In this document: in pieces, positions 12,394 through 36,996 of the stretch
Position numbering within the stretch: the first letter of the stretch is position 1
Layout of the letters: each line of letters starts with the position of its first letter
DNA from: Chitinophagaceae bacterium
Lineage (GTDB): Bacteria; Bacteroidota; Bacteroidia; Chitinophagales; Chitinophagaceae
Assembly: GCA_009996675.1 (NCBI GenBank)
Contig: JAACZQ010000047.1
Location: 1 to 43,560, forward strand
DNA length: 43,560 nt
Direction: 5' to 3'
Notes under the pieces: generated by a model
Told to the model about the DNA's origin: nothing
Databases searched by the model: none
Seen by the model: only the letters and a program-made list of their open reading frames with translations
Program-made: the position numbers and the translations under genes

Positions 12394-13248
12394 TCAGCGT
12401 TTTCCCTCAAAAAAGCCCTGGCTCTTGAGGATTTTACGCAGGATATCAATCCTGGCATCCATCATTTTAGCATCATGGGGACCTTCGGCATTCAGCACAA
12501 AGAAATACGGATGTTTGTTTTCTTCAATCCAGCCAACGATCCAGCCAATCAGGTTACCATTCTCTTTAAAGCCCAGTCCCGTCTTATAAGCCAGGGTATA
12601 ATTGGCATTCTGTTCCCGAACCATTACTTTTTTAACAATTTCCTGCGTTCTTTTCTGAAACGGCAGCTGGTCGAAATACAGTTTTTTCACCAGGCCCATC
12701 TGTTCGTCGGGCGTAATTTTCAGACTATTGTTGATCCAGAATGAATCAACGGCAGTACCGATCTTTTTATTACCATATTGCAAACTATCCAACCAATGCT
12801 GCATCGTATCACGGCCAATCCTGCGGGCCACTTCCTGATAATAGGGTAATGCCGATACTGCAAAAGCTTCCTCCATGGTAAGATCCTTATTCCAGCTGCT
12901 GGCCGTATCGCCACCCGGGAAAATACGCACCACGCCATCCCATTTAATAACCATTTTTTCATTACTGATGCGGCCGGTTTCCAGTCCGATCAGTGAATTC
13001 ACAATTTTAAAAGTAGAAGCAGGCAGGTAAGCAGAATCCTTGAAACGCTCCAGGTTATAAATGGTAAACTGACCAGTACCATTATCATATAAGCCAAAAG
13101 TTCCGCTCAGCTGATGTGCATCAAAATATTGTTTGTAGCTGTTTTCAACAGTTACATTATTGGGAGAACAACCTGGCAGCAGGGAAAAGCTGACAATGAT
13201 GCCCGTTAATAAAACGCGTATTGTTGCGAGAGAATGCTTCATGATCAT
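12394..13248 (-). CDS. Class D (OXA-type) beta-lactamase homologue, predicted lipoprotein
   Basis: A 284-residue serine beta-lactamase-fold protein. A signal sequence ends in the lipobox LPGC, giving a lipidated Cys27. Class D motifs: Ser78-Thr-Phe-Lys81 (acylating serine and the lysine that is carbamylated in OXA enzymes), Tyr158-Gly-Asn160, Trp171 (FWINNSLKI) and Lys222-Thr-Gly224. The usual Ser-x-Val motif reads Ser132-Ala-Leu134. It starts 4 bases after kbl stops, so it is probably translated from the kbl message; an alternative start is Met3. Hydrolysis of penicillin-type drugs is the family expectation, but the changed motif and the metabolic operon leave the true substrate open. No BlaR-like sensor lies nearby. 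Confidence 0.88.
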   Translation of the reverse strand: MIMKHSLATIRVLLTGIIVSFSLLPGCSPNNVTVENSYKQYFDAHQLSGTFGLYDNGTGQFTIYNLERFKDSAYLPASTFKIVNSLIGLETGRISNEKMVIKWDGVVRIFPGGDTASSWNKDLTMEEAFAVSALPYYQEVARRIGRDTMQHWLDSLQYGNKKIGTAVDSFWINNSLKITPDEQMGLVKKLYFDQLPFQKRTQEIVKKVMVREQNANYTLAYKTGLGFKENGNLIGWIVGWIEENKHPYFFVLNAEGPHDAKMMDARIDILRKILKSQGFFEGKR

Positions 13249-14535: not shown

Positions 14536-15219
14536 TTATACAACAAAACGATAACCCACACCCTTGATGGTAATGATTTCAAGGCTTGAATCTTCCTTCA
14601 GATAACCCCGGATTTTGGTAATATATACATCCAGGTTGCGGCTGTTGAAAAAGGAATCGTTTCCCCAGATATGATTCAGCAGATCGCGCCGGTCGATCAC
14701 ATTATTCCGATGCTGATAGAGGTATTTAATCAGTTCCGACTCCCGGTAAGATAGTTTTCGCTCATCCGACGGGCCAGTTAGTACCTGCTTATTGATATGA
14801 AACTGGTACTTACCCATTTGCAGCAGGTCGCCGGTAACTGTTATGATTTCTTCCTTTTTAACCCGCAGGGCATTCTCAATGCGAACAATCAGTTCCTCCA
14901 TACTGAAAGGCTTTCGGATATAATCGTTCGCTCCCAGCTTAAACCCTTGTACCACATCTTCTGTCTGCGTTTTGGCTGTCAGGAAAATAATGGGCACATC
15001 ATCATTTAATTCCCGGATATCTTTGGCCAGTTCAAAGCCGCTTCTATTGGGCAACATCACATCCAGGATACAGATATCCGGTTGTTCGTCTTCAAAACTA
15101 CGAACCACATCGGCTCCATCTGATTCCATAACCACATCAAAGCCCCTGCCTTCCAGGGTTTCCTTTACGATTTTCCCCAGGAAAAGCTCATCTTCTACAT
15201 ACAATACTTTGATGGGCAT
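14536..15219 (-). CDS. OmpR/PhoB-type response regulator
   Basis: A 227-residue two-component response regulator. The receiver domain (1-120) shows the acidic pair near residues 10-11 (YVEDE), the phosphoacceptor Asp53 (CILDVMLP), Thr81 and the conserved Lys103 (IRKPF). The C-terminal winged helix (about 130-227) has LSYRESELIKYLYQH, the wing region NLDVYITKIRGYLKEDSSL and the terminal GVGYRFVV typical of the OmpR family. The kinase gene ends 32 bases upstream, so they form a pair. Such regulators bind tandem direct repeats spaced by about one helical turn; candidate sites of this form occur at 17149-17186 and 24515-24552. Confidence 0.95.
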   Translation of the reverse strand: MPIKVLYVEDELFLGKIVKETLEGRGFDVVMESDGADVVRSFEDEQPDICILDVMLPNRSGFELAKDIRELNDDVPIIFLTAKTQTEDVVQGFKLGANDYIRKPFSMEELIVRIENALRVKKEEIITVTGDLLQMGKYQFHINKQVLTGPSDERKLSYRESELIKYLYQHRNNVIDRRDLLNHIWGNDSFFNSRNLDVYITKIRGYLKEDSSLEIITIKGVGYRFVV

Positions 15220-15251: not shown

Positions 15252-17102
15252 TTATATACTTCTGGCCGGAAGTTCAACTACAAAACTGCTCCCTTCACCG
15301 GGCTGACTTTGTACGGAGATATGTCCATGGTGACTTTTCACTACTTCAGCCACATAACTTAATCCAAGCCCATACCCTTTGATATTATGCTGATTACCGG
15401 TAGGCACCCGGAAAAATTTCTCGAATATTTTGAGCTGGTGTTGCGACGCTATACCCATACCATTGTCCCTGACCGTAAGTATTACTGTATGATTATCACG
15501 GGCAGACAGGCTGATCTGGATGGAGGGCTTGCCGGGAGAATATTTTAGGGCATTATCCAGCAGATTATAAATAACACTGGTGATATGCAGCTTATCTGCT
15601 TCAATCATGAAACTATCAGGGGTAGTTTCAAACTGAACACTGGCTTTGTTTTTTTCAAACTGTAACTTCATCACATGCAATGTTTCTTGCACCAGTTCTT
15701 TCAGATCAAATGGCTCTTTGTTCAGCTCAATCTGCTTTTTCTCAAACATGGAAAGCTTTAATACCTTATCCACCAGCAGACTCAGTCGCTGTAATTCCGC
15801 TGCAGAAATATCCAGGTATTCCCGGGTCCGTTCCGGGCTTTGTATGGCATTGAAATTCCGTAATGCTTCAATAGCAACTCCAACAGTAGCAATTGGAGTT
15901 TTTAGTTCATGGGTGATATTACTGATGAAATCGTTTTTGATATTGGCCAGTCGCTGCTGCGCCATCATATTCCGGTACATGATTACAAAAGCACCAATCA
16001 CAATCAGCAGTAGCAATACCGAACCACCAATTTGCATCTGCATTTGTCGCAGTACATAGCTATTCGTGCCGGTAAATTTTGCCTGATAAGCATAGGGGGT
16101 ATTATACCCAACAAAAAACTCTGAAGTAACCACATCACCACCAACACTGTCCCTGTTTCGTTTGATATTCCAGTTCCGGATACCACTATCCTTATAAGAT
16201 TTAAACAGGATAGAAAAATTGAGTTGTTTATGCAACTTATTCAGCTCCGACCGGTAAGCGGAGTCTACTGATTTAACCGGTATAGAATCATTAATAGTTT
16301 TGTTATTCGACAGAAAAGCCACAATGGGAGAGTTTGTCAATGGCTCCTGGTGTGGTTGGGAGATAAAGATGCGGTCAACCGCCGGTGTTGTTTTTTTACC
16401 GATAACTGCGGAGTCTGTTCTGGCTGACCGGCTGCTGTCGGGTTTGGGTTTGAGCCGAATAGTGGCAACGGCACCCGGCATTATCCTGCCTGCAATTTTC
16501 AGCATACTGTCGCGCATATGCCGTCCCTGACCCGAATCCTTGATTTGCAGGTTATACGTAAAAAAATTGCTTTTGGGTGCTTCCTTGTGATCATCCGTAC
16601 GGGTATTGGTAAAAAAAGAATCAACCCGTATACTGAATTTGGCAGAATCGCCCAGTTCTTGTTTTCGCTTCAGAATAAGTTCAATTAAACCGGGAGGTGG
16701 CGCCCCTTTAAAACTGAAACCGGAGCGTACGGTTACCGATTCAATGGAATCTACCGGAATCTGACTCAGGGTTTGGTCAGGACCCAGGTTCCGATAAATA
16801 ACCCGGGCCGGTTGACCTGAAGCAACAGGTCTGATGGCTATACCATTGATTGTTTTACTAGTCTTATCTGTAGATTTCGTACGAACCGTAACAGCACCGG
16901 TCGTTTTACCAATCAAAGCCGTATCCGTTTCAAAGCGTTTTAGCTGCAGCTTATTCATGGCTTCGCGGAAACTCACATCTACTTCCTTGCTCAGACTCTG
17001 GTATTCATCACGGTACAACTTCCGCAGCCAGTAGCCCTGAAAAGCTGCCAGCAGCAATATGGCCAAAGCCATCAATATCCTGGAAAGTTGTAGTTTATTC
17101 AT
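15252..17102 (-). CDS. Membrane sensor histidine kinase
   Basis: A 616-residue kinase with two membrane helices (about 7-24 and 359-377) that bracket a periplasmic sensor region of about 330 residues without recognisable domains. The dimerisation domain carries phosphoacceptor His398 (NITHELKTP). The ATPase domain has the N box (Asn513/Asn517, YNLLDNALKYS), G1 (RDNGMGI, 545-551) and G2 (GYGLGL, 576-581). It is followed by its response regulator and is divergent from a GLPGLI gene. The large unassigned sensor region suggests detection of an envelope signal (inference). A -7 box lies only 10 bases upstream of the ATG, so the leader must be very short. Confidence 0.95.
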   Translation of the reverse strand: MNKLQLSRILMALAILLLAAFQGYWLRKLYRDEYQSLSKEVDVSFREAMNKLQLKRFETDTALIGKTTGAVTVRTKSTDKTSKTINGIAIRPVASGQPARVIYRNLGPDQTLSQIPVDSIESVTVRSGFSFKGAPPPGLIELILKRKQELGDSAKFSIRVDSFFTNTRTDDHKEAPKSNFFTYNLQIKDSGQGRHMRDSMLKIAGRIMPGAVATIRLKPKPDSSRSARTDSAVIGKKTTPAVDRIFISQPHQEPLTNSPIVAFLSNNKTINDSIPVKSVDSAYRSELNKLHKQLNFSILFKSYKDSGIRNWNIKRNRDSVGGDVVTSEFFVGYNTPYAYQAKFTGTNSYVLRQMQMQIGGSVLLLLIVIGAFVIMYRNMMAQQRLANIKNDFISNITHELKTPIATVGVAIEALRNFNAIQSPERTREYLDISAAELQRLSLLVDKVLKLSMFEKKQIELNKEPFDLKELVQETLHVMKLQFEKNKASVQFETTPDSFMIEADKLHITSVIYNLLDNALKYSPGKPSIQISLSARDNHTVILTVRDNGMGIASQHQLKIFEKFFRVPTGNQHNIKGYGLGLSYVAEVVKSHHGHISVQSQPGEGSSFVVELPARSI

Positions 17103-17112
17103 GTGTAGGATA

Positions 17113-17120
17113 CAAAGGTA
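17113..17120 (-). promoter_or_regulatory. -7 box of the histidine kinase promoter
   Basis: TACCTTTG on the minus strand, an exact TAnnTTTG match, 10 bases upstream of the kinase ATG. No TTG is found at -33; the ATTAACC repeats begin 28 bases further up and could supply an activator. Confidence 0.45.
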
Positions 17121-17148: not shown

Positions 17149-17186
17149 ATTAACCTAAATTAACCTTTGTGCAAGAATGCTTAACA
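17149..17186 (+). promoter_or_regulatory. Direct-repeat array, likely response-regulator binding site
   Basis: Three copies in the same orientation: ATTAACC at 17149, ATTAACC at 17159 and the weaker CTTAACA at 17180, so offsets are 0, 10 and 31 bases, all on one helix face. The same offsets occur upstream of the beta-barrel gene at 24466. OmpR-type regulators typically bind such tandem repeats. The array sits between the divergent kinase and GLPGLI promoters. Confidence 0.55.
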
Positions 17187-17197
17187 CAGTACGCATT

Positions 17198-17205
17198 TAG
17201 CTTTG
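17198..17205 (+). promoter_or_regulatory. -7 box of the GLPGLI promoter
   Basis: TAGCTTTG, an exact match to TAnnTTTG, 52 bases before the ATG at 17258. The position for a -33 TTG holds GAA, so the promoter probably needs an activator bound at the repeat array just upstream. Confidence 0.5.
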
Positions 17206-17257
17206 ACTTCAATCCCTGACAAAGGAGTTGTATATCACTCAAAGTAAAAAATCTTAC

Positions 17258-18085
17258 ATGAAAAAAGTGTTTTTCTCCCTGATGCTCTCTTTGGGCGGCA
17301 TTTCTGCAATGGCCCAATTAAAAGAAGGAACAGTTGTATATGAAAGAAAAGTGAACGTACATCGGACCATTACCGATGAGCAAATGCGTGCCATGATACC
17401 TGAATTCCGCACATCCAAACATATGCTGATGTTTAGTGACAGCGTTTCACTTTTCCGTCTGCTTCCGGAAGACGAAGCACCTGATCCGTTTGCCGGTGGT
17501 AATGGTGGCCGCGTAATGTTCCGTTTTGGGGGCAATACGGATGGTGGTGATCTGTATAAAAACTTATCCCAAAGCAAGTCTGTGCTAACAGCTGAGCTGG
17601 CAGATAAGAATTATCTCATTATCGACACCATTCGCCAGTTACCCTGGAAACTCACCGGCGAAACCAAGCAGATACTGGGATATACTTGTTTGAAAGCTAC
17701 CCGCAAAATGAATGTGAGTATTGCCCCGGCTAGGCGCATGGTTGTAGGCGGTAGTGGTATAAGTGTAAACAATTCAACAGAAAACGATGCGCCCCAGCAG
17801 AAAGAGATTGAAGTGGTAGCCTGGTATACAGAAGCGATTGCCTGTCCCGCTGGCCCCGATAACAACGGTCAGTTGCCCGGATTAATTCTGCAACTCGACA
17901 GTGACAATGGTGCTACCGTTTACAACGCAATAGAAGTGAAAAAAACTGTTGACATGAAGGAATTGAAAGAACCCAAAAAAGGGAAAATTATTACACAGGT
18001 AGAATTCAACAAACTCCGCGCTGATCTGATGCAACAACAGATGCAAAATATGGGCGGCGGCCGCAATATTCGATTTGGCAATTAA
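17258..18085 (+). CDS. GLPGLI-family secreted protein
   Basis: A 275-residue protein with signal peptide MKKVFFSLMLSLGGISAMAQ; ATG 17258 is preferred over a TTG ten codons upstream because it places the basic residues of the signal peptide at the N-terminus. The family's name motif appears as QLPGLI (205-210) in a GQLPGLILQLD context, preceded by a region rich in beta strands (WYTEAIACPAGP). GLPGLI proteins are Bacteroidota-specific, exported and of unknown biochemical role; they often occur near outer-membrane beta-barrel proteins and two-component systems. Here the gene is divergent from the kinase/regulator pair and shares its control region, so it is a likely target of that system. The C-terminus is Gln/Met/Gly rich. 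Confidence 0.9.
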   Translation: MKKVFFSLMLSLGGISAMAQLKEGTVVYERKVNVHRTITDEQMRAMIPEFRTSKHMLMFSDSVSLFRLLPEDEAPDPFAGGNGGRVMFRFGGNTDGGDLYKNLSQSKSVLTAELADKNYLIIDTIRQLPWKLTGETKQILGYTCLKATRKMNVSIAPARRMVVGGSGISVNNSTENDAPQQKEIEVVAWYTEAIACPAGPDNNGQLPGLILQLDSDNGATVYNAIEVKKTVDMKELKEPKKGKIITQVEFNKLRADLMQQQMQNMGGGRNIRFGN

Positions 18086-18104
18086 TAACCTAACACTACC
18101 AATA

Positions 18105-18133
18105 AAAAGCCCGGTCTGATTGATCGGGCTTTT
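18105..18133. terminator. Bidirectional terminator after the GLPGLI gene
   Basis: Arms 18105-18116 and 18122-18133 form a 12-bp stem (one G-U) with a 5-base loop, flanked by A and T tracts. It lies between the convergent GLPGLI gene and the coiled-coil protein gene. Confidence 0.85.
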
Positions 18134-18140
18134 GTTTATC

Positions 18141-19688
18141 CTATTTCAGAAGTTCTTCCAGCCATCCCTTATTGGTTGTTTTCTGAACCGCCTCCATATC
18201 CGCAACATTCAGGCCACGCAGGAAACTCTTATACCCCGACAAATAAGAAGCATTTGACGCAGAAGGACAGTATGCATTGAATACATGCGAGCTGTAGGGT
18301 TTAGACAGGGAAATTACAGCCTGTACGCAGGGGAATACCTGATTCCAGTTACCTCCCACATCCGACCTGGCCTGGTTATATACCGGACAATTCACTGGTT
18401 GGCTGGCAGTAAGCATTCGCCCGCTCTCCGTACCGATGAGGTTATACAAATCGGTTTGCCTCTTTTGCACCTGATCTACGCGATCATTGTATGCATTCTG
18501 TGCCTGTCCACGTTCCGATGTGGCATTGGTTACCGACAACCTCAATTCCCTGATCCTGGCATCAGCAGCAGCCCTTATTTTAGCTACAGCCAGCTCCTGC
18601 TCTTTAGGCAGTCCGATTTTTAATTGCCATATTTCACTGTCAAGTATTTTGTTATCGGCCAGCAATTTTTTAGCTGTATTCTCATAACTGGTTTTAGCTG
18701 ACAGGATTTCGCCATCAAGTCTTTTTATTGCAGCAAGAATCTCCGTTTTACGCGCCGTTAACAGTACGCGTAAACTATCTTTCAGCTTAGGCATGCGCAA
18801 ATCTGTTTCAATACCCCCCAACTCTTTTTGATACTCCCCTTTGGCGGCTTTTTGGGGATCAATCAGTTGTTCCAGTTGAACTTCGGCTTCTGCGAGCTGT
18901 TGTTTATTTCGCGCAATCTTATCATTTTTTAATGCCTGATTCTCCTCGTTCTGCTTTTTCAATGCCTCTCTTTTTTCTGCCGCATCTTTCTGGAATTGCA
19001 CTTCAGTAGCATCAATCCGGGCATTGTAAATAGTTATCTTATCGGTGGCAATGAGCACCGGAGTAACATAATTGAGCAACTCATTCACCCAGGATTCATG
19101 CTTGCTTTTAGCATCCGCAAACACTTGCTTGTCATAACGCTTACTATGTTCTGTGATCTCTGTACAAAGCGATGTGTTATCTTTTTCCGTATCATCGATC
19201 TGCTTTTTCTTAGCCGCAATTGCCGGATCTTCTTTTTGCAAAGCCAATAACTGCACTTTTTTATAGGCAATTTTTTCCCGATACAAAGCCCTTGTAGCTT
19301 CCAGCTCCGAAGTAGGCGCCGGAACGGCATAGCCCTTTACTTCACCCAAATGTTTCTGGAAATCAATGCCCTGTTTTTCAAACTCAGACTTGTATTTACC
19401 GCACTGACTGCATTTAGCACCTACTTTCATATCACGGATCAAGTCATCCATTTCTTTGTACAAGGCATTAATTTCATTCTGCATCCGCTGGATACGGGCT
19501 TTCCAGGCAGAATCAAGGGAAGCAAGTTGTTCTTTATACTGACTGATCCTTTGCCGGTTATCGAGTATCCGTTTGGCTTTTGATTCAATAGCAGTGACTT
19601 CTCCAATACCAACGGTTGACTGAGCATACACTATGCTTGTCATCACAATAAAACAAAAGAAAAGTACGGGCTGTTTTAATTTTTGCAT
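18141..19688 (-). CDS. Secreted coiled-coil protein of unknown function
   Basis: I do not recognise the family. The 515-residue product has a signal peptide (about 1-22, ending VYAQ). A long charged region (about 30-420) is rich in Lys, Glu, Gln, Ala and Leu with heptad-like spacing, so it is probably extended coiled coil. This is interrupted near residue 93 by a CxxC (AKCSQCGKYK), which could bind metal or form a disulfide. The C-terminal 85 residues are different: they contain isolated cysteines and aromatic residues and look globular. It follows the 204-aa protein gene by 18 bases and is probably co-transcribed with it. A periplasmic or surface scaffolding role is only a guess. Confidence 0.75.
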   Translation of the reverse strand: MQKLKQPVLFFCFIVMTSIVYAQSTVGIGEVTAIESKAKRILDNRQRISQYKEQLASLDSAWKARIQRMQNEINALYKEMDDLIRDMKVGAKCSQCGKYKSEFEKQGIDFQKHLGEVKGYAVPAPTSELEATRALYREKIAYKKVQLLALQKEDPAIAAKKKQIDDTEKDNTSLCTEITEHSKRYDKQVFADAKSKHESWVNELLNYVTPVLIATDKITIYNARIDATEVQFQKDAAEKREALKKQNEENQALKNDKIARNKQQLAEAEVQLEQLIDPQKAAKGEYQKELGGIETDLRMPKLKDSLRVLLTARKTEILAAIKRLDGEILSAKTSYENTAKKLLADNKILDSEIWQLKIGLPKEQELAVAKIRAAADARIRELRLSVTNATSERGQAQNAYNDRVDQVQKRQTDLYNLIGTESGRMLTASQPVNCPVYNQARSDVGGNWNQVFPCVQAVISLSKPYSSHVFNAYCPSASNASYLSGYKSFLRGLNVADMEAVQKTTNKGWLEELLK

Positions 19689-19706
19689 GCGACTATGCCT
19701 TGAATA

Positions 19707-20321
19707 TTATTTACCGAAAGGATCATCTTCTGCTTTGGCGAGGTTACGTAAATGTTCCAGTGCCTTGCGTATTTTGTCGAAATTGGTACCATCCGATTTC
19801 AGGTAAGGCATACTTATCTGGTTTACGTAGTACTGTTTGCGATCTGTTTCTTTCCAGTCATAATAATAAACACTACCGTCGTTTCGGGTTCTGTAATAAC
19901 CATATCCGTTAGCGGTTTGGATATCGATTGCCGTTTGTGCCGTTAATGTAATTGTTATTACACCAACCGGGTCTGAAGAATATTGATCTGCAGCGAGCGT
20001 AATAGATGATATCTGTGCCGGGTTAAACGTTGTGTAGTTGTATTTAACGTTATAATTACTTTGCTGATCTCCGGCTGACGAGTTTACATAATTACTCCGC
20101 TGTGTTGTAATCTTTACGCCCTTAGTATCATTGACAAATTCTGAACTCCAGAAATATAATCTTTCGCTGGTACCTACAGGTGTTCGGTAGTAACCAATAA
20201 TTTCTTTAAACTTTTTATTGAGATAGTTAACCGTTTCTTCTTTGGTTAGCATTTCCTTTTGTGCGTGGGCAGTTTGCAACATATACGCACAGGCAAAAAC
20301 AAATAATAATTTGGTTTTCAT
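19707..20321 (-). CDS. Small secreted protein of unknown function
   Basis: A 204-residue protein with signal peptide MKTKLLFVFACAYMLQTAHAQ. The mature part is rich in Tyr, Asn, Ser and Thr, with alternating polar/hydrophobic stretches typical of beta structure, and it ends in a short helix and the acidic tail KAEDDPFGK. I cannot assign a family. It is the first gene of a two-gene unit: the coiled-coil protein begins 18 bases later. A good -7 box (TATATTTG) lies 26 bases upstream of the ATG. The pair's shared export signals suggest that the two products work together outside the cytoplasm (inference). Confidence 0.72.
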   Translation of the reverse strand: MKTKLLFVFACAYMLQTAHAQKEMLTKEETVNYLNKKFKEIIGYYRTPVGTSERLYFWSSEFVNDTKGVKITTQRSNYVNSSAGDQQSNYNVKYNYTTFNPAQISSITLAADQYSSDPVGVITITLTAQTAIDIQTANGYGYYRTRNDGSVYYYDWKETDRKQYYVNQISMPYLKSDGTNFDKIRKALEHLRNLAKAEDDPFGK

Positions 20322-20347
20322 ATGATAGAATTTTACAGTGGCTGACC

Positions 20348-20355
20348 CAAATATA
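20348..20355 (-). promoter_or_regulatory. -7 box upstream of the secreted-protein pair
   Basis: TATATTTG on the minus strand, an exact TAnnTTTG match, 26 bases before the start of the 204-aa protein. No TTG at the -33 position. Confidence 0.45.
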
Positions 20356-20439
20356 AAAACTATGCCATCCGATGATAGCGAAATGCGAACCTAATTTGTG
20401 TTATTTGAGGAGAATACCTGTTTTTCGGTATGCGTAATC

Positions 20440-21549
20440 TCACAGTTTGCCTGTGCTGGCTGATGCCTCCCACCAGGGTTCAAATTTATTGTATTGTCCC
20501 CATGTTACCGGCTCCCCTATTTTGGGGGTAAGCAAGGGTATTTGCTGAAGACTGGAATGAACAATAAGCCGCATGATCGGCTCGTCCCAGGCATGGTTGG
20601 CGAGTTGAAATTTACCCCAATGCACAGGTAATAATTGCTGTGCTTTCAGGTCTCTGGCTGCCTGTGCCACTTCTTCGGGCATCATGTGAATATACTTCCA
20701 GTTTTTATCGTATTGACCACATTCCAGTATCGCCAGATGAAAAGGACCATAGGCTTCTCCTACAGCAGCAAAATGGGTATCGTAACCGCTATCGCCACCC
20801 AGGTAAATACACTGCGACGGGCTGTAGAGTACAAAGGAAGTCCACAATACCTGGTTTCTTTTCAATCCGCGACCGGAAAAATGTCTTGCCGGAGTCAGCA
20901 CTACTTCAAAACCGTCCTGCAGATCAAAACGGTCATGCCATTCCCCTTCGAGGATCTGGTCCGGCTGAAAACCCCATCGTTCCAGGTGTGCTCCCGTACC
21001 CAGCCCGGTAATTACTTTTTTCACCCGCTTACGCAATGCGCTGACAGTTTTATAGTCGAGGTGATCCCAATGATCGTGGGTAATGAATAAGTAATCAATA
21101 TCAGGCAGATCATCCGCGGTATAAGGATCTGTGCCAGGAAAACTTTTACCCGTACCTGGTAAGGGTGAAATGCTGCCGCTCAATACCGGATCCACCAATA
21201 TTTTTTTCCCGTCGAGTTGCATAAAATAACTCGAATGACCCAGCCAAACAAATACCCGTTCCTTGGGTTGCAGGGCATGGAGATCTGTTTTAACAACAGG
21301 CAGGACCTGACCGGGCCTCCCTCTTTTGCTTTTTCCGAAGATAAATTCCCACAAAACCGTTCCATACCTTACCCCTTCCGTAAGGTCTGGCGTATAAGTC
21401 AGATTTTGAAAACGGTTATTCTGGTAATGCGCAGAGGCCCTGATCCGTGCCAGTCTTTCACCCCTGGCTATGGCGCCAAATGCCGGTGTACGGATATACA
21501 GCAGAAAAAAAAGGACAAGTATTCCGGTAATTAAAAAGATATAAAACAT
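20440..21549 (-). CDS. Membrane-anchored metallo-beta-lactamase-fold hydrolase (NAPE-PLD/UlaG-like)
   Basis: A protein of 369 residues from ATG 21549, or 379 from ATG 21579; I prefer the shorter form because it begins with a single 20-residue membrane helix. The metal-binding signature HDHWDHLD gives the HxHxDH motif. Further ligands are expected in TPARHFSGRG, GGDSGYD and LPVHWGKFQL. This order, and the substrate-side GHSSYFMQLDGKKILVDPV, match bacterial relatives of N-acylphosphatidylethanolamine phospholipase D and UlaG-type lactonases. Phospholipid-related hydrolysis near the inner membrane is plausible, but the substrate is not known. It stands between two terminators and appears to be a single-gene unit. 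Confidence 0.85.
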   Translation of the reverse strand: MFYIFLITGILVLFFLLYIRTPAFGAIARGERLARIRASAHYQNNRFQNLTYTPDLTEGVRYGTVLWEFIFGKSKRGRPGQVLPVVKTDLHALQPKERVFVWLGHSSYFMQLDGKKILVDPVLSGSISPLPGTGKSFPGTDPYTADDLPDIDYLFITHDHWDHLDYKTVSALRKRVKKVITGLGTGAHLERWGFQPDQILEGEWHDRFDLQDGFEVVLTPARHFSGRGLKRNQVLWTSFVLYSPSQCIYLGGDSGYDTHFAAVGEAYGPFHLAILECGQYDKNWKYIHMMPEEVAQAARDLKAQQLLPVHWGKFQLANHAWDEPIMRLIVHSSLQQIPLLTPKIGEPVTWGQYNKFEPWWEASASTGKL

Positions 21550-21602
21550 AATTATTGTGCTTACCAGTAAGACGAACATCCCTGAAGGATATTGTACAAA
21601 AA

Positions 21603-21627
21603 CGCCCCGTTTTATTCAAACGGGGCG
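21603..21627 (-). terminator. Terminator of beta-barrel protein 1
   Basis: Arms 21603-21612 and 21618-21627 (10 bp, CGCCCCGTTT/AAACGGGGCG) with a 5-base loop. On the minus strand it is followed by TTTTTG. It lies 31 bases beyond the stop of the beta-barrel gene. Confidence 0.88.
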
Positions 21628-21658
21628 CAAATCATGAGAAAATAACAACGGAAGCCTG

Positions 21659-24466
21659 CTATCCTCCAATTGTTCTAACAAACATGCGTGGTCCACTTGA
21701 TGCATTACCGCTTTTATTCAGGCTCAGCGTAAAGCTCAACAGGAAATAACGTTGCAAAACATTATAGCGGGTATCTTCAATATAGTTCTGATTGGCATTC
21801 CGGGAAATTCCTACGTTTTTATTGAGCAGGTCAAATACGCTCAATTTCACTTCGGCCCGTTTGTTTTTCAGGAAACTTTTAGCCAGAGATGCATTCCAGA
21901 ATGGTACGCTGGTATTGAAGCCATCGGCCCGGCCGGAATTAATCGTATAGTTAAATGTATTATTCAGTATCAGCCCCAGCGGCAGGTAATTATTCATATC
22001 CAGTCCATAGGTTTGCTGCAGGTAATTGCTGTTCAACTGCGATTGCAACGAATATTGCGCCCTGCTGATGTTCAACCTTGCTGAAGCCTGCACATCCATC
22101 AGGTTATCTTTATTGAAGCTATAGGTAAGTGAAGGCCCGATACTGCTATTCCTGATTTCATTCTTTTTACCGTTCAGGAAAGAAATGGTATTGGTAAGAT
22201 TACTACCCAGTCCTATATCTATACGGGATTTTATTTTTTTGATGGGGAATCCGGCATTGATGCTTCCGAACAAAAAGTACTGTCCGTTCGCATTAATAGG
22301 CATACTGATCCGCGAACCATTGGGCTGCAACACATCCGAGTTAATAATAGCATTATTGGTGATATTCGCCGACAGGAAAGCAAAGAAATTGCGTTGCGTA
22401 TACACATTGGTTGCAAAATAATTCAACGAGATACTTTGGGCATAACTCCGCTTTAAATTGGGATTGCCAGTATAGGTATACAGCGGATCACTGACATCTG
22501 CTACCGGCTGCAATTGACTGGTGGATGGTTGTGTAGTAGAAGTATTATAATTAAGTGTCAGGGACTTGGATGAAGCTATACGATACTGTAGCATGGCATT
22601 GGGCAACAAATCCGTAAAGCTTTGTGACACCACATTATTATTGGTCTTATTCACACTCTCCAGTTTTGCAAACTGCATAGAAGCACCCACAGTCATGGTC
22701 AGTTTTTTCATATTGGAGCGGAAATTCAAGCTACCTCCGCCATAACTGTAATTGCTGGAGAAACTATTGGTTAAAGCCGTATTCAGCTTATCGTATTTCC
22801 CGGAAGCTCCATTGTAATCATATGTGGCACGATCGCTTTCGCCGGAATTGGTATTATAAAAACTGCTGATTTCAAGTAAAGACCTTTTACCAATAGGTTC
22901 TGTATACACGAGATTCATGCCAAGGTTTCGGGTAACGGCGTTGCGGCTATTCTTCTGATTGGTGATGGAATCACGCAGCGGAACACCAGCAGCATAAAAT
23001 GTGTTCCTGGTTTGCAGATCCCCGGTTTGCTTACTATCGTTATAATTAATAGTCACTGTGGAAGACAGGGTTCTCCCCTTCTTTTTTAAACGCTGACGGT
23101 ACAGCGCTGTTCCAGCCAGGTTTAATGCCTCAGAATGGGTTTTATTATCGCTATAACCATCATTCAGGGTTACACCTTTATTATCTTTCGATACATAACT
23201 GTTATAGCTGCGTGTATCGTTTTGCTGCGCTGTAATCTGGGGTGTAAACTTCAAAGAAGTAAGGCTGTCGAATTTATGATCAATGCTGCCGTTCCATCTT
23301 TGTTGCTTCACACGGCGGGCCGTATTGGTGTTGGCCAGATAATCAAAATTATTTCCGGGTAACAGATTTTGTCTTGTTACAGTCCGGTTGGTGGCCAGAT
23401 CTATATCGCTTAACATTAAGCTGGTATTCACATCACTTTTCTTATTCCAGTTGTCATTATAGTTCAGACCACCGGCATAGGTTTTTGCAACACCCTGCTG
23501 ATTCTGTCCCAAACCACTTACAGGCAACCCATCATCGCTACCACCTGAGCGAATGGTAATACCACCTCCATTACGCATACCGCGGGCAAGGTCTCCGGTA
23601 AAATTCATTACATCACTCAAGCTAAAGCCCTGCCGGTTGGTATTATTACCCATGGCCAAGAGCGACATCTGCTGATCTCCGTTGAATTTATTGATATTGG
23701 TTTGTCCGTCGTATCGCTCTTTATTTCCCGCACCAGCTGTAACCCGACCGAACAATGATTTATTTCTGTCTTTTTTCAGTTTCAGGTTGATGGCTTTTTC
23801 GCTGTTACCATCATCAATACCTGTAAATTCAGCACGATCGCTTCGTTTATCGAAAACCTGTACTTTATCCACAGCACTGGCATCCAGGTTTTTAGTTGCA
23901 ATTTTAGGATCGCCTGTAAAAAATTCTTTCCCGTTGACCAGTACGCGGTTAATTTTTTGTCCGTTTACCCGAACAGTACCATCATTATCTACCGTTACGC
24001 CCGGCAATTTCTTCAGCAGGTCTTCTACTACTGCATTGGGTTGTGTTTTAAAGTTTTCGGTATTAAATTCTACCGTATCGTTATTAATGGTTACGGGGGC
24101 CCTGCGGGCATTTACTGTTACATCGGATCCGTGTACCAGATCGGTCATGGCCAGGTTACCCATATCCAATGTTTCACCCGGCTTAATATCTATTTCTTTC
24201 CAAACTGGCACAAAGCCAACATAGGAAGCGGAAAGCAGGTAGCTGCCTTTGTCCAGACTTGGGATTGAAAAATAACCTTCAGCATTGGCCCGTGTAAACG
24301 TAACCAATGTTGAATCTTTGGTATTTACCACGGATACCGTTGCATAGGCCAGTCCTTTTTTGGATGCCGTATCATAAACAGTACCTTTTACGGCTACGGG
24401 CTTGGTTTGCGCCTGTAAGCAAAACGGGAGTAAAACAATGGTGATCAGGGTGAGCATGCGATACAT
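21659..24466 (-). CDS. Outer-membrane beta-barrel protein 1 (TonB-receptor-like, N-terminal carboxypeptidase-regulatory domain)
   Basis: A 935-residue outer-membrane protein. Signal peptide about 1-20; carboxypeptidase-regulatory-like domain about 24-105 (VKGTVYDTASKKGLAYATV); plug-like domain about 115-225, including DTVEFNTENFKT, LLKKLPGVTVD and KEFFTGDPKIATKNL. The remainder is barrel, with alternating strands and many Asn/Ser/Thr. No SusD-type partner and no N-terminal FecR-interaction domain are seen, so this is not a standard polysaccharide-utilisation locus. Beta-barrel protein 2 (34111-36996) is a paralogue with the same domain order. The control region carries the direct-repeat array also found at the GLPGLI promoter. 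The transported or displayed ligand is unknown. Confidence 0.9.
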   Translation of the reverse strand: MYRMLTLITIVLLPFCLQAQTKPVAVKGTVYDTASKKGLAYATVSVVNTKDSTLVTFTRANAEGYFSIPSLDKGSYLLSASYVGFVPVWKEIDIKPGETLDMGNLAMTDLVHGSDVTVNARRAPVTINNDTVEFNTENFKTQPNAVVEDLLKKLPGVTVDNDGTVRVNGQKINRVLVNGKEFFTGDPKIATKNLDASAVDKVQVFDKRSDRAEFTGIDDGNSEKAINLKLKKDRNKSLFGRVTAGAGNKERYDGQTNINKFNGDQQMSLLAMGNNTNRQGFSLSDVMNFTGDLARGMRNGGGITIRSGGSDDGLPVSGLGQNQQGVAKTYAGGLNYNDNWNKKSDVNTSLMLSDIDLATNRTVTRQNLLPGNNFDYLANTNTARRVKQQRWNGSIDHKFDSLTSLKFTPQITAQQNDTRSYNSYVSKDNKGVTLNDGYSDNKTHSEALNLAGTALYRQRLKKKGRTLSSTVTINYNDSKQTGDLQTRNTFYAAGVPLRDSITNQKNSRNAVTRNLGMNLVYTEPIGKRSLLEISSFYNTNSGESDRATYDYNGASGKYDKLNTALTNSFSSNYSYGGGSLNFRSNMKKLTMTVGASMQFAKLESVNKTNNNVVSQSFTDLLPNAMLQYRIASSKSLTLNYNTSTTQPSTSQLQPVADVSDPLYTYTGNPNLKRSYAQSISLNYFATNVYTQRNFFAFLSANITNNAIINSDVLQPNGSRISMPINANGQYFLFGSINAGFPIKKIKSRIDIGLGSNLTNTISFLNGKKNEIRNSSIGPSLTYSFNKDNLMDVQASARLNISRAQYSLQSQLNSNYLQQTYGLDMNNYLPLGLILNNTFNYTINSGRADGFNTSVPFWNASLAKSFLKNKRAEVKLSVFDLLNKNVGISRNANQNYIEDTRYNVLQRYFLLSFTLSLNKSGNASSGPRMFVRTIGG

Positions 24467-24485
24467 GAGTCTTGGTTTTGTAGCT

Positions 24486-24552
24486 CAAAAGTATCGGAGG
24501 GATCCCTGATTAGCGGTTAATGAACTTTGGGGAAAGGTTAATGAAGGTTAAA
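24486..24552 (-). promoter_or_regulatory. Promoter of beta-barrel protein 1 with direct-repeat array
   Basis: On the minus strand: TTTAACC (24552-24546), ATTAACC (24542-24536), ATTAACC (24521-24515), giving offsets 0, 10 and 31 as at 17149-17186. An exact -7 box TACTTTTG lies at 24493-24486, 19 bases before the ATG. The -33 position lacks TTG and abuts the third repeat, which suggests activation. Confidence 0.55.
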
Positions 24553-34110: not shown

Positions 34111-36996
34111 TTATTCATTTCCGCCACGGAAACTGCCGCCGGCCCGCATGATCTGGCGGTTCATGCCGGGTGGCATCATCATATTGGGACCACGTTGTTG
34201 CTGGTTATTGGCTCCAAAGCGACGCAGGTTATAGGTAAAACTCACCATAAAATAGCGCTTCAGCACCCTGGTTTGTACGTCCTGGATGGTATTGCCGGTC
34301 GTATATCGAAATATAGACTGATTTTGGTTCATGAGGTCAAACAGGAAAAATTTCAGTTCGCCGGACTTGTCTTTCAGCATCTGCTTGGATAAACTCAGAT
34401 TCAGCAGGGGAATACTGGTATTATAACCAGCAGCACGGCCACCATTGTAAGTATAATCAAAGTCAGTCGCAAAAACCCATCCACTCTTGCTGTAAACAGT
34501 TGCATCTACGGAGACCGTTTGCGAGAAGAAGTTGGCATTTTGCTGCGGCTGCAGTGTATAACGGGCAATATTATAGGTTGACATCGTACCAAAATTCATG
34601 TCAAACCCTTCCTTGATATTGGTAGTCCAGTTAATCCCACCATTCAGTGTGGTACTGCGTGTATAATTGTGTTGTGCATTTACAAGAGTCTGGGTCTGGC
34701 TACGCATAGCCCCGATCGTAAAATTCATATTGCTCTTGGGCTTTTTGAAGGGGAAGCCATAGTTGAAGAATCCATTCAGGTTATAGGTACCATTCAGGTT
34801 TACCGGCCGGGTAATCTGTGCGCCGTTGGGTAATATGGTAGTTGAGTTCTGAATATCATTCTGAATAAAGCTGGCATTGATGGTAGCAAAAATCAGTTTC
34901 TGGGTGAACATGTCAAATGAGTTGTACAGCAGTCTGAAACTATGTGTGAACTGCTGCTTCAGGTTGGGATTACCCGTTTTAATGTTCAGCGGATTGGAAT
35001 TGTCTACCACTGGCTGTAACTGGTCTGCCGAAGGTTGTGAAGTACGGCCATTATAAAAAAACCGCAGGTTCTTCGATTTACTGAAATCATACCGGAAATT
35101 GGCTGATGGGAAGAAATTCACATAATGCTGACGCAGGGTGCTGTCTTTAGTGATGTTGTAGCTGGTCAGATCCCCCACCTGCACACCCGATCCTATACTA
35201 AAATTATACTTGGCATTCTGAATACGATAGTTCAGTGTAAAGCGGTTTGAGCTGAATGTATTCTCGAATGTATTGCTCAGGTTGGGTACAACAATATCGT
35301 ATTTACCCGTACCACCATTGTATTGCAAAGTGCTCTTCCCTGAAGTGTTTTTATTGTATGAGTAGTTGTAGTTGAACTCCAACTGCTGGTTTTTGGCAAT
35401 AGGTTCGGTATAAGAAGCGGTAACACTGATATTTTGTGCATCGCGGTTACTGGTATAAATCTGGTCGATGGTATCTTTATAGGCAGGCGCACTCACCGGG
35501 TAGTACTGGTTGAGAGAATAGTTTCTGCCACTACCATCATTTGTATTGCCACCTGCATTAATACCTATGGAATAAGTGCGGCCTCTTTTAGCAAAACGGT
35601 GACGGAAAGTTGCGTCGATATTACCATTGATGCCTTTATTCTCACGGGTATTATTTACATCAGAACCATTCAATGCGGTTATTTTACCACGGGTTGAGCT
35701 GCTTTGCTGTAATGTTTGTGACCAGGTATCCTGGAAAGTAATATTGGACCGTATGATCATGGAATTCATACTATCGAACTGGTGTTCGATATTGAAGTTA
35801 ATCCGGTGGTTCTTATTATAGGTCTTGGAAGACTGGGTCTGATCACTGTACAGGGAAGAATCCGGACTTCCGGGGATGAGGTTTTGTGTTAGGCTTTTCT
35901 GATCGCGGTACGTTTTCTGATCGTTGTAGAAATAGCTTCCTGAAAACTGTGTTTTAGGGCTCCAGGTATCGCGATAGTTAATACCACCAGCCCAGGTATT
36001 CACCAATCCACCACCGCTACCGGTTCCTAACAGGCCCTGAACAGCAGCCATGCCTCCGCCACCAAAGTTACCGCCGCCGCCGCGGTTACCACCGCCACCG
36101 CCGCCAAAATTGCCTCCACCCAAAGAACCCAGGATATCCTGTACGGAGAAATTCTGTTTATTGACATTATTTCCCTGGCCGATAAAAGTGATTTGTCTGT
36201 CGCCGTTAAACCGGCTCAGGTTAATGCTATTATCATACACAGCTTCATCGGTATTGGCACCAGCTCCAAGGCTGGCTTTACCGAAATACCCCTTGCGTTT
36301 ATCCTTACGGGTGGTGATATTGATGGTTTTAATCCGGTTACCATCATCAAATCCGGTGAAAGCACTTTGATCGCTCATGGCATCAAATACCTGGATTTTG
36401 TCGATTACATCCGGAGGCAGGTTACGGGTAGCCATTTTAGGGTCATCACCAAAAAAACGCTTACCGTCTACCAGGATGCGCTGTACTTGTTCACCCTGCG
36501 CTTTTACCGTTCCGTCTTTATCTACCTGTATACCTGGTATTTTTTTCAGCAGGTCTTCTGCAACAGCATTGGGTTTGGTCTTGAAAGCAGATGCGGTAAA
36601 CTCTACCGTATCTTTTTTCATCTGCACCGGCGATTGGGTAACCGTTACATTACCCAGATCATTGGCTCCCATGGCCATATAAATCGTACCCAGGTCTACC
36701 GAGCTGTTGGTTTTTGAAAATGTGATATGCCGGGAAATGGGTTCATAACCCTGGAATTTGATCTGGACGATCATCGGTCCGAAACTAATATTACTGATGA
36801 GAAAGCTGCCATCGGATTTGGCCAAACCAAAAACATCCAAAGTAGAATCTTTGGCATCCAACACGGTAATGGAAGCATCCTTCATGGATTGTTTGGCAAC
36901 AGAATCAACCAGCTTTCCTTTGAGGGTTGCAGTATTTTGCGCATAACCAATGCCAGCCGTTAATAAAAGGCCCAGAAAAAGTATAAATTTCCGCAT
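34111..36996 (-). CDS. Outer-membrane beta-barrel protein 2 (paralogue of protein 1)
   Basis: A 961-residue outer-membrane protein with signal peptide (about 1-19), a carboxypeptidase-regulatory-like domain (about 23-105), a plug-like domain ([44 protein letters not shown]) and a long barrel. The order is that of the protein encoded at 21659-24466, with clear similarity throughout, so the two are paralogues. Two differences stand out: a glycine-rich insertion at residues 289-330, and a 30-residue Gln/Met/Pro/Gly tail after the last barrel strand ([10 protein letters not shown]). Its upstream region lacks the ATTAACC array seen for protein 1, so it is probably controlled differently. No SusD partner. 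Confidence 0.9.
36007..36131 (-). repeat. Glycine-codon low-complexity tract
   Basis: Inside beta-barrel gene 2: runs of GGN codons (read as CC/CCG/CCA triplets on the plus strand) encode [19 protein letters not shown] and more. Imperfect triplet repeats of this sort can expand or contract. The paralogue has only a short GGG here. Confidence 0.8.

What the first reader, a model, noticed from the sequence alone, without database searches (positions are those of the whole stretch)
17149..24552. Same three-part direct repeat at two promoters suggests a local two-component regulon
Seen: upstream of the GLPGLI gene, ATTAACC/ATTAACC/CTTAACA at 17149, 17159 and 17180. Upstream of beta-barrel protein 1, on its own strand, TTTAACC/ATTAACC/ATTAACC at 24552, 24542 and 24521. 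Both have offsets 0, 10 and 31 and the same orientation to the gene; the second copy continues ATTAACCTTT in both. Both promoters have an exact TAnnTTTG box but no -33 TTG, and the distance from the last repeat to the -7 box differs by 10 bases, one helical turn. Known: OmpR-type regulators bind such repeats and activate weak promoters. Inference: the regulator encoded at 14536-15219 controls its own divergent GLPGLI gene and the barrel protein.
Basis: partly seen in the sequence, partly recalled or inferred. Interest (0 to 1): 0.72.

Follow-up and report, generated by a model that had tools for sequence, protein, structure and literature searches.

The report
Shared switch controls envelope gene pair
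In this genome the same 36-base DNA pattern occurs at just two places, in front of a gene for a predicted secreted protein and a gene for a predicted outer-membrane barrel, and it is likely the docking site of the two-component regulator encoded next to the first copy, which would switch on both genes and probably its own operon.

Summary
The repeats are real and not chance. TTAAC-N5-TTAAC-N16-TTAAC occurs exactly twice in the 3.25-Mb genome, before GLPGLI and before the barrel gene; a 25-letter consensus at up to 3 mismatches finds only these two. Of 394 family genomes 149 hold the exact pattern (reversed control: 38), and it tracks the kinase orthologue: 134 of 165 genomes with it, 15 of 229 without. 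In 46 loci read, mostly chosen for holding sites, 41 of 77 exact sites precede GLPGLI and 34 the barrel gene.

Geometry is rigid. The GLPGLI -7 box lies 16/17 or 27 bases from the last half-site, the barrel box at 27; on the kinase side a box lies 42-45 bases away in 77 of 86 distinct sequences, so the kinase operon is probably a third target. All 33 loci with two exact sites have the two genes on opposite strands; all 7 loci with them in one operon have one site.

The operator is better read as four half-sites. The kind of system is ordinary, its geometry unusually sharp.

The parts
17150..17185 (+). Operator 1: TTAAC at 17150, 17160 and 17181, degenerate half-site GCAAG at 17171-17175
   Evidence: Exact in sequence; one of only two exact genome matches
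24516..24551 (-). Operator 2: TTAAC at 24551, 24541 and 24520, degenerate half-site CCAAA at 24530-24526
   Evidence: Exact in sequence; second of two exact genome matches
17198..17205 (+). -7 box TAGCTTTG of the GLPGLI promoter, offset 17 from the last half-site
   Evidence: Sequence; offset 16/17 or 27 in 56 of 59 distinct rows
24486..24493 (-). -7 box TACTTTTG of the barrel promoter, offset 27
   Evidence: Sequence; offset 27 in 32 of 34 barrel sites, 16 strict and 16 relaxed
17113..17120 (-). -7 box TACCTTTG of the kinase-regulator operon, 44 bases from the end of operator 1's distal pair
   Evidence: a box at 42-45 in 77 of 86 distinct upstream sequences
14536..15219 (-). OmpR-type response regulator (227 aa), predicted binder of both operators
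   Evidence: Response_reg and Trans_reg_C; best NCBIfam RprY, 239.6 bits, below its cut-off of 370
15252..17102 (-). Sensor histidine kinase (616 aa)
   Evidence: HisKA and HATPase_c
17258..18085 (+). GLPGLI family protein, target 1; signal-peptide-like start, predicted beta fold
   Evidence: TIGR01200, 122.3 bits against a cut-off of 50; model
21659..24466 (-). Outer-membrane beta-barrel family protein with CarboxypepD_reg domain, target 2
   Evidence: PF14905, 126.8 bits against a cut-off of 27

Best explanation
Two copies of one 36-base operator stand in front of the GLPGLI gene and an outer-membrane beta-barrel gene, and the OmpR-type response regulator encoded beside the first copy likely binds both and would activate these two genes and its own kinase-regulator operon. 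Each operator holds four quasi-repeats at 0, 10, 21 and 31, which would take two head-to-tail regulator dimers centred two helical turns apart (inferred). The target promoters have a -7 box but almost never a -33 TTG (shown), so the regulator would replace the missing -33 contact (inferred). RNA polymerase would be reached at either of two positions one helical turn apart (spacings shown, contact inferred). At operator 1 the distal pair also lies at a fixed distance from the kinase promoter's -7 box on the other strand (shown), so autoregulation is likely.
For: Uniqueness in the genome. Exact pattern in 149 of 394 family genomes, tracking the kinase orthologue: 134 of 165 with it, 15 of 229 without (not corrected for shared ancestry). 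Genus: 10 of 11 orthologous kinase loci, own included, against 0 of 19 paralogous ones. Of 77 exact sites in 46 loci (40 chosen because they hold sites, 6 the window and kinase relatives), 41 precede GLPGLI, 34 the barrel gene, 2 neither. Fixed spacing: GLPGLI, 25 distinct rows at 16/17 and 31 at 27 of 59, none between, 3 switches on the tree by parsimony of which starred branches force 1; barrel 27 in 32 of 34; kinase side 42-45 in 77 of 86. Of loci where both target genes were seen, all 33 with two exact sites have them on opposite strands, and of 11 with one site 7 have them in one operon. Of 24 kinase loci without the exact pattern, 22 keep the pair but only 4 have GLPGLI. Own genome: 22 PF14905 matches over cut-off, from about 20 genes, and 2 GLPGLI genes over cut-off; only one of each has the operator.
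Against: No binding, expression or start-site data. 31 of 165 kinase-bearing genomes lack the exact pattern and 15 of 229 without the kinase have it. L186 and L187 keep GLPGLI and the pair but no third half-site; L192 and L201 have it at 30, not 31. In L220 the barrel has no site within 2 mismatches. In L164 the operator lies about 800 bases upstream of the kinase and points the same way as it. Five distinct kinase rows keep the full operator without GLPGLI. With ancestry taken into account, loss of GLPGLI and loss of the third half-site go together in 4.7 of 7 independent pairs, sign test p 0.0625; after dropping two loci that cannot be judged, 2.8 of 5, p 0.25, never the other way: consistent but not significant. 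Outside the family the number of genomes with the pattern does not exceed the reversed control. In Riemerella the direct beta-barrel target and two of five GLPGLI genes were repressed, not activated (passages, PMC9603813).
Confidence: 0.8

Rival explanations
1. The same regulator binds both operators but represses, or both activates and represses depending on phosphorylation or on the promoter.
For: Riemerella PhoP, with a TTTAACA core, directly activates three GLPGLI genes and represses two and a beta-barrel gene (passages of PMC9603813). In the 16/17 class the last half-site would overlap the -33 region (inferred).
Against: In the 27 class the operator lies wholly upstream of the core promoter (inferred from the box position); target promoters lack a -33 TTG in 53 of 55, as expected where an activator is needed.
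Confidence: 0.2
2. Another OmpR-type regulator in the genome binds the operators and the neighbouring kinase-regulator pair is only a passenger.
For: OmpR-family binding sites resemble each other (recalled); outside the family, similar operators stand beside kinases that are not closest to this one.
Against: Presence of the operator follows this kinase orthologue (134 of 165 against 15 of 229); it was seen beside 0 of 19 paralogous kinases; the pair lies 41-55 bases from the kinase start in 66 of 101 loci that hold it.
Confidence: 0.08
3. The shared repeats are chance AT-rich words or a mobile repeat element.
For: Short AT-rich words are common; the reversed pattern occurs in 38 of 394 family genomes (my count from the table), and the bare pair alone is no commoner than its control in this genome.
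Against: Two exact matches in the genome, both in front of these genes, and conserved spacing on both sides. The two copies differ between the half-sites, unlike recent copies of an element.
Confidence: 0.01

Closest known systems
PhoPR of Riemerella anatipestifer (PMC9603813, start of abstract and passages seen; PMC5399024, start of abstract and passages seen)
   Same: OmpR-type regulator of a Bacteroidota; motif core TTTAACA; binds a 35-nt region upstream of its own operon; direct targets include five GLPGLI genes and an outer-membrane beta-barrel gene.
   Different: 583 DAP-seq peaks and 50 direct, differentially expressed targets there, two exact sites here. No 0/10/21/31 architecture in the passages seen. 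Regulator orthology not testable here.
RprY of Bacteroidota (NCBIfam NF051850)
   Same: Best NCBIfam match of this regulator, over nearly its full length.
   Different: 239.6 bits against a cut-off of 370, so not RprY itself; a term search of PMC3646045 found no motif, consensus or binding-site passage.
HaeR (PGN_0753) and PG0720 of Porphyromonas gingivalis, which I recall to be the same regulator (PMC3764172 and PMC8757827, one passage and the start of the abstract of each seen)
   Same: HaeR binds its own promoter; two GLPGLI genes are listed among the changed genes in the PG0720 study.
   Different: By title and passage the stress lies on heme and capsule genes; no operator in the passages seen.
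OmpR/PhoB-type tandem sites (recalled, from no call)
   Same: Direct 10-11 base repeats bound head to tail, replacing a weak -35 contact.
   Different: Here one operator faces two divergent promoters at fixed distances.

Membership tests
OmpR/PhoB family two-component regulator | Receiver plus winged-helix Trans_reg_C domains | tested here: met
   PF00072 98.7 bits, PF00486 66.9 bits
OmpR/PhoB family two-component regulator | Operator of direct repeats on one helix face | tested here: met
   Repeats at 0/10/31 in the window's two sites and 73 further GLPGLI and barrel sites, with a degenerate one at 21; that this regulator binds them is inferred
OmpR/PhoB family two-component regulator | Phosphorylation-dependent binding | not testable with these tools
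   Needs purified protein
RprY (NF051850) | Score at or above the curated cut-off | tested here: not met
   239.6 against 370 bits
Riemerella PhoP regulon | TTTAACA-type half-site | tested here: inconclusive
   TTAAC core shared. Before the first TTAAC: A in 42, T in 18 of 75 sites; after it: C in 66, A in 3; after the second TTAAC: C in 43, A in 26 (columns -1, 5 and 15)
Riemerella PhoP regulon | Orthologous regulator | not testable with these tools
GLPGLI family (TIGR01200) | Score at or above the curated cut-off | tested here: met
   122.3 against 50 bits
OMP_b-brl_3 (PF14905) | Score at or above the curated cut-off | tested here: met
   126.8 against 27 bits
LolA/RseB-like fold for GLPGLI | Structural match | tested here: inconclusive

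The most novel reading that the evidence does not exclude
A single 36-base operator of two tandem dimer sites drives two divergent promoters at once, reaching RNA polymerase at quantised helical distances on both sides. This logic is shared well beyond this family across Bacteroidota, with the divergent target swapped between GLPGLI-barrel pairs and other secreted proteins while the operator geometry stays, so that the operator, not the target, is the ancient part. GLPGLI, a LolA/RseB-like periplasmic protein, works with the barrel in envelope surveillance and feeds back on the kinase.
Probability: 0.3. Interest if true: 0.7.

Novelty: new member of a known kind. Interest (0 to 1): 0.5.

Why it matters
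GLPGLI proteins and their barrel partners recur in Bacteroidota and, as far as I know, have no established job. A two-promoter regulon that goes with them through gene moves says they act together and under which regulator. The exact operator and the 10-base quantum of promoter spacing give ready-made mutants for testing how this phylum's unusual promoters are activated.

Tried and rejected
Chance words: rejected. Many genomic sites: rejected; 2-mismatch matches do not exceed the reversed control. A bare pair TTAAC-N5-TTAAC as the signal: 9 genome matches against 8 in the control, so the pair alone is not specific. Orthology of the kinases beside similar operators outside the family: not shown; in the tree most of them group with paralogues rather than with this kinase, with one very long branch at the midpoint root. 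The first tree lost most of those rows because my H-box pattern was too narrow. Barrels or GLPGLI genes in general as targets: rejected, since the own genome has about 20 genes with PF14905 matches over cut-off and 2 GLPGLI genes over cut-off and only one of each has the operator. A phylogenetically corrected link between GLPGLI loss and third-half-site loss: same direction but not significant. Literature: no paper describing this operator turned up in the listings; subscription papers are mostly not held.

Selection and rows dropped: the 40 regions were chosen from the matches, mostly because two sites lay close together, so numbers of sites per locus are not a random sample (37 of the 149 motif genomes; G383 was not read). 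Regions were also chosen by hand; sites were counted within the fetched stretch, and some genomes have further matches elsewhere. In one search, 18 of 62 loci did not show both target genes and cannot be judged. From one search's 105 loci (some from the same genome) duplicates were removed; one search skipped L089, L200 and L201 for short kinase pieces and one contig-end locus. On re-checking, L164 and L177 could not be judged (operator far from the kinase; locus ends at the kinase) and were dropped, which weakened the tree test. Of the 31 kinase-bearing genomes without the motif, 24 were read; 7 had no listed coordinates. The 1e-100 line between orthologue and paralogue kinases is mine; paralogue best scores ended near 1e-91.
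Full report
The observation. On + coordinates TTAAC begins at 17150, 17160 and 17181 before the GLPGLI gene, and on the - strand at 24551, 24541 and 24520 before the barrel gene. The exact pattern TTAAC-N5-TTAAC-N16-TTAAC has two matches in the 3,249,067-base genome, and they are these two. Letting in 2 mismatches adds four places, while the same pattern read backwards gives 13, so there is no sign of more sites. A 25-letter consensus built from relatives finds only these two at up to 3 mismatches, with no control match. The genome is 95% complete in 166 contigs, so a missing site cannot be excluded.

The genes. The regulator has receiver and Trans_reg_C domains, the kinase HisKA and HATPase_c domains. 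GLPGLI matches TIGR01200 at 122.3 bits (cut-off 50) and the barrel PF14905 at 126.8 bits (cut-off 27). The closest NCBIfam model of the regulator is RprY, but far below that model's cut-off. Those of the 120 listed regulator relatives that bear an organism name are Sediminibacterium or unnamed Chitinophagaceae and Bacteroidota assemblies, and a contig of family genome G382 has the length of a named Puia contig, so the family is Chitinophagaceae (inferred).

Conservation. In 394 genomes drawn from the family, 149 hold the exact pattern; the reversed control matches in 38 (my count from the table). With a profile of the kinase, 165 genomes have a best match under 1e-100; the other best matches end near 1e-91, and 12 genomes have none at the limit used. 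Of these 165, 134 have the pattern; of the other 229, 15 do, which is of the order of the control. Fisher p is 3e-56, but genomes share ancestry. In the genus (61 genomes), the operator with 0 or 1 mismatch lies beside 10 of 11 orthologous kinase loci, the window's own included (the last is cut by a contig end), and beside 0 of 19 paralogous ones that were fetched.

What the operators stand in front of. I read 46 loci: the window, five named relatives, and 40 regions from 37 of the 149 genomes, chosen because they hold sites. Of 77 exact sites, 41 are followed by GLPGLI, 34 by the barrel, and 2 by neither: L007, where GLPGLI is gone, and L071, where a TMEM260-like membrane protein stands instead. 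The GLPGLI sites have a kinase divergent behind them in the table.

Geometry. Measured from the first base of the last TTAAC, the -7 box TAnnTTTG of GLPGLI lies at 16 or 17 in 25 distinct rows and at 27 in 31; 3 of 59 have no strict box, and no value between 17 and 27 occurs. The label changes 3 times on the kinase tree by parsimony; well-supported branches force only one change. The barrel box lies at 27 in 16 sites by the strict pattern and in 16 more by a relaxed one (often TAnnTTCG), with 2 sites showing none. On the kinase side, on the other strand, a strict box lies 42-45 bases from the end of the distal pair in 77 of 86 distinct sequences, 69 of them at 43 or 44. A TTG at the -33 spacing is found in 2 of 55 target promoters with a strict box (1.8 expected from shuffling) and in 8 of 76 kinase promoters (5.0 expected). 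The offset-21 half-site is degenerate but conserved: A at 24 in 37 of 41 and 33 of 34 sites. Two tandem dimer sites, 0/10 and 21/31, are my inference from this.

Gene moves and losses. In one search, 44 of 62 loci show both target genes. All 33 with two exact sites have them on opposite strands. Of 11 with one exact site, 7 have them in one operon (six GLPGLI then barrel, one the reverse) and 4 on opposite strands: L009 (second site with 1 mismatch), L070 and L220 (the same genome; in L220 no site before the barrel) and L202 (barrel start outside the fetched stretch). The loci were chosen by their sites, not by gene order, so the link is informative but the rates are not. In 24 loci that have the kinase but not the exact pattern, GLPGLI was seen beside the kinase in 4; the pair TTAAC-N5-TTAAC was still there in 22. 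These were picked for lacking the exact pattern, so the missing third half-site is by selection; the missing GLPGLI and the kept pair are not. Among 84 distinct kinases that can be judged, GLPGLI and third half-site are both present in 59, both absent in 17, and split in 8. Independent pairs on the tree go the same way in 2.8 of 5 and never the other way, p 0.25 (with two unjudgeable loci left in, 4.7 of 7, p 0.0625), so the link is suggestive only once ancestry is allowed for. I read the pair as the autoregulatory half and the full site as the target half (inferred).

Beyond the family. In 395 genomes across the phylum, 31 have the exact pattern, 24 of them outside the 14 genomes of the family; outside the family the reversed control matches in 26 genomes (my counts), so the number alone shows nothing. 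The places do: of the 23 such loci read, 18 lie in front of a histidine kinase or its fragment on the opposite strand, in many cases about 40 bases from its start, and one more (L133) faces a barrel-GLPGLI operon. In one family (code f17) 8 of 11 genomes have four perfect TTAAC at 0, 10, 20 and 31. There the strict kinase-side box lies at 42 in 5 of 11 and the target-side box at 27 in 3 by the strict and 5 more by a relaxed pattern. The divergent genes there encode acidic repeat proteins; of three scanned, two have no Pfam match and one only a sub-threshold match. The f17 kinases form a clade that groups with paralogues, not with this kinase. In family f8, GLPGLI and barrel form an operon behind one such operator in the two genomes read there that have GLPGLI (L210, L216).

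Known work. In Riemerella, PhoP DAP-seq gives a TTTAACA core, binding to a 35-nt stretch before its own operon, and direct GLPGLI and beta-barrel targets, some activated and some repressed (passages of PMC9603813). This is the closest tested parallel; I could not test whether the regulators are orthologous.

Verdict. It is ordinary in kind and unusually sharp in geometry. Binding and direction of regulation are still to be shown.

Noticed in passing
window 34114-36996 (-): A second PF14905-type barrel gene in the window without the operator in front of it; a natural negative control.
   Followed up: partly
L007 9945 (-) and L093: In these two close relatives no GLPGLI gene was found beside the kinase but the full operator remains.
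   Followed up: partly
L071 4212-7342: The operator beside the kinase faces a TMEM260-like membrane protein instead of GLPGLI: target apparently replaced, operator kept.
   Followed up: partly
L137-L148 (family code f17, L137 f35): Similar operators, many with four perfect half-sites, face acidic secreted-looking proteins with repeats like VTTxENGEExTxVYEGEEAEEFL; of three scanned, two had no Pfam match and one only a sub-threshold one.
   Followed up: partly
L208 1635 and 2374: Tandem copies of the operator with a kinase fragment, as if the start of the kinase gene and its operator had been duplicated.
   Followed up: no
L164 3188 (-): An exact operator about 800 bases upstream of the kinase and pointing the same way as it, unlike the usual divergent layout; possibly a rearrangement.
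   Followed up: no
G000:C70:10876-12980: The genome's other GLPGLI gene over cut-off also lies beside a PF14905 barrel on the same strand, but without this operator, so the pairing recurs outside this regulon.
   Followed up: no
window 12394-13248 (-): Class D beta-lactamase-like gene just at the NCBIfam cut-off (250.3 against 250 bits); homologues lie at the same place in L007 and L008.
   Followed up: no
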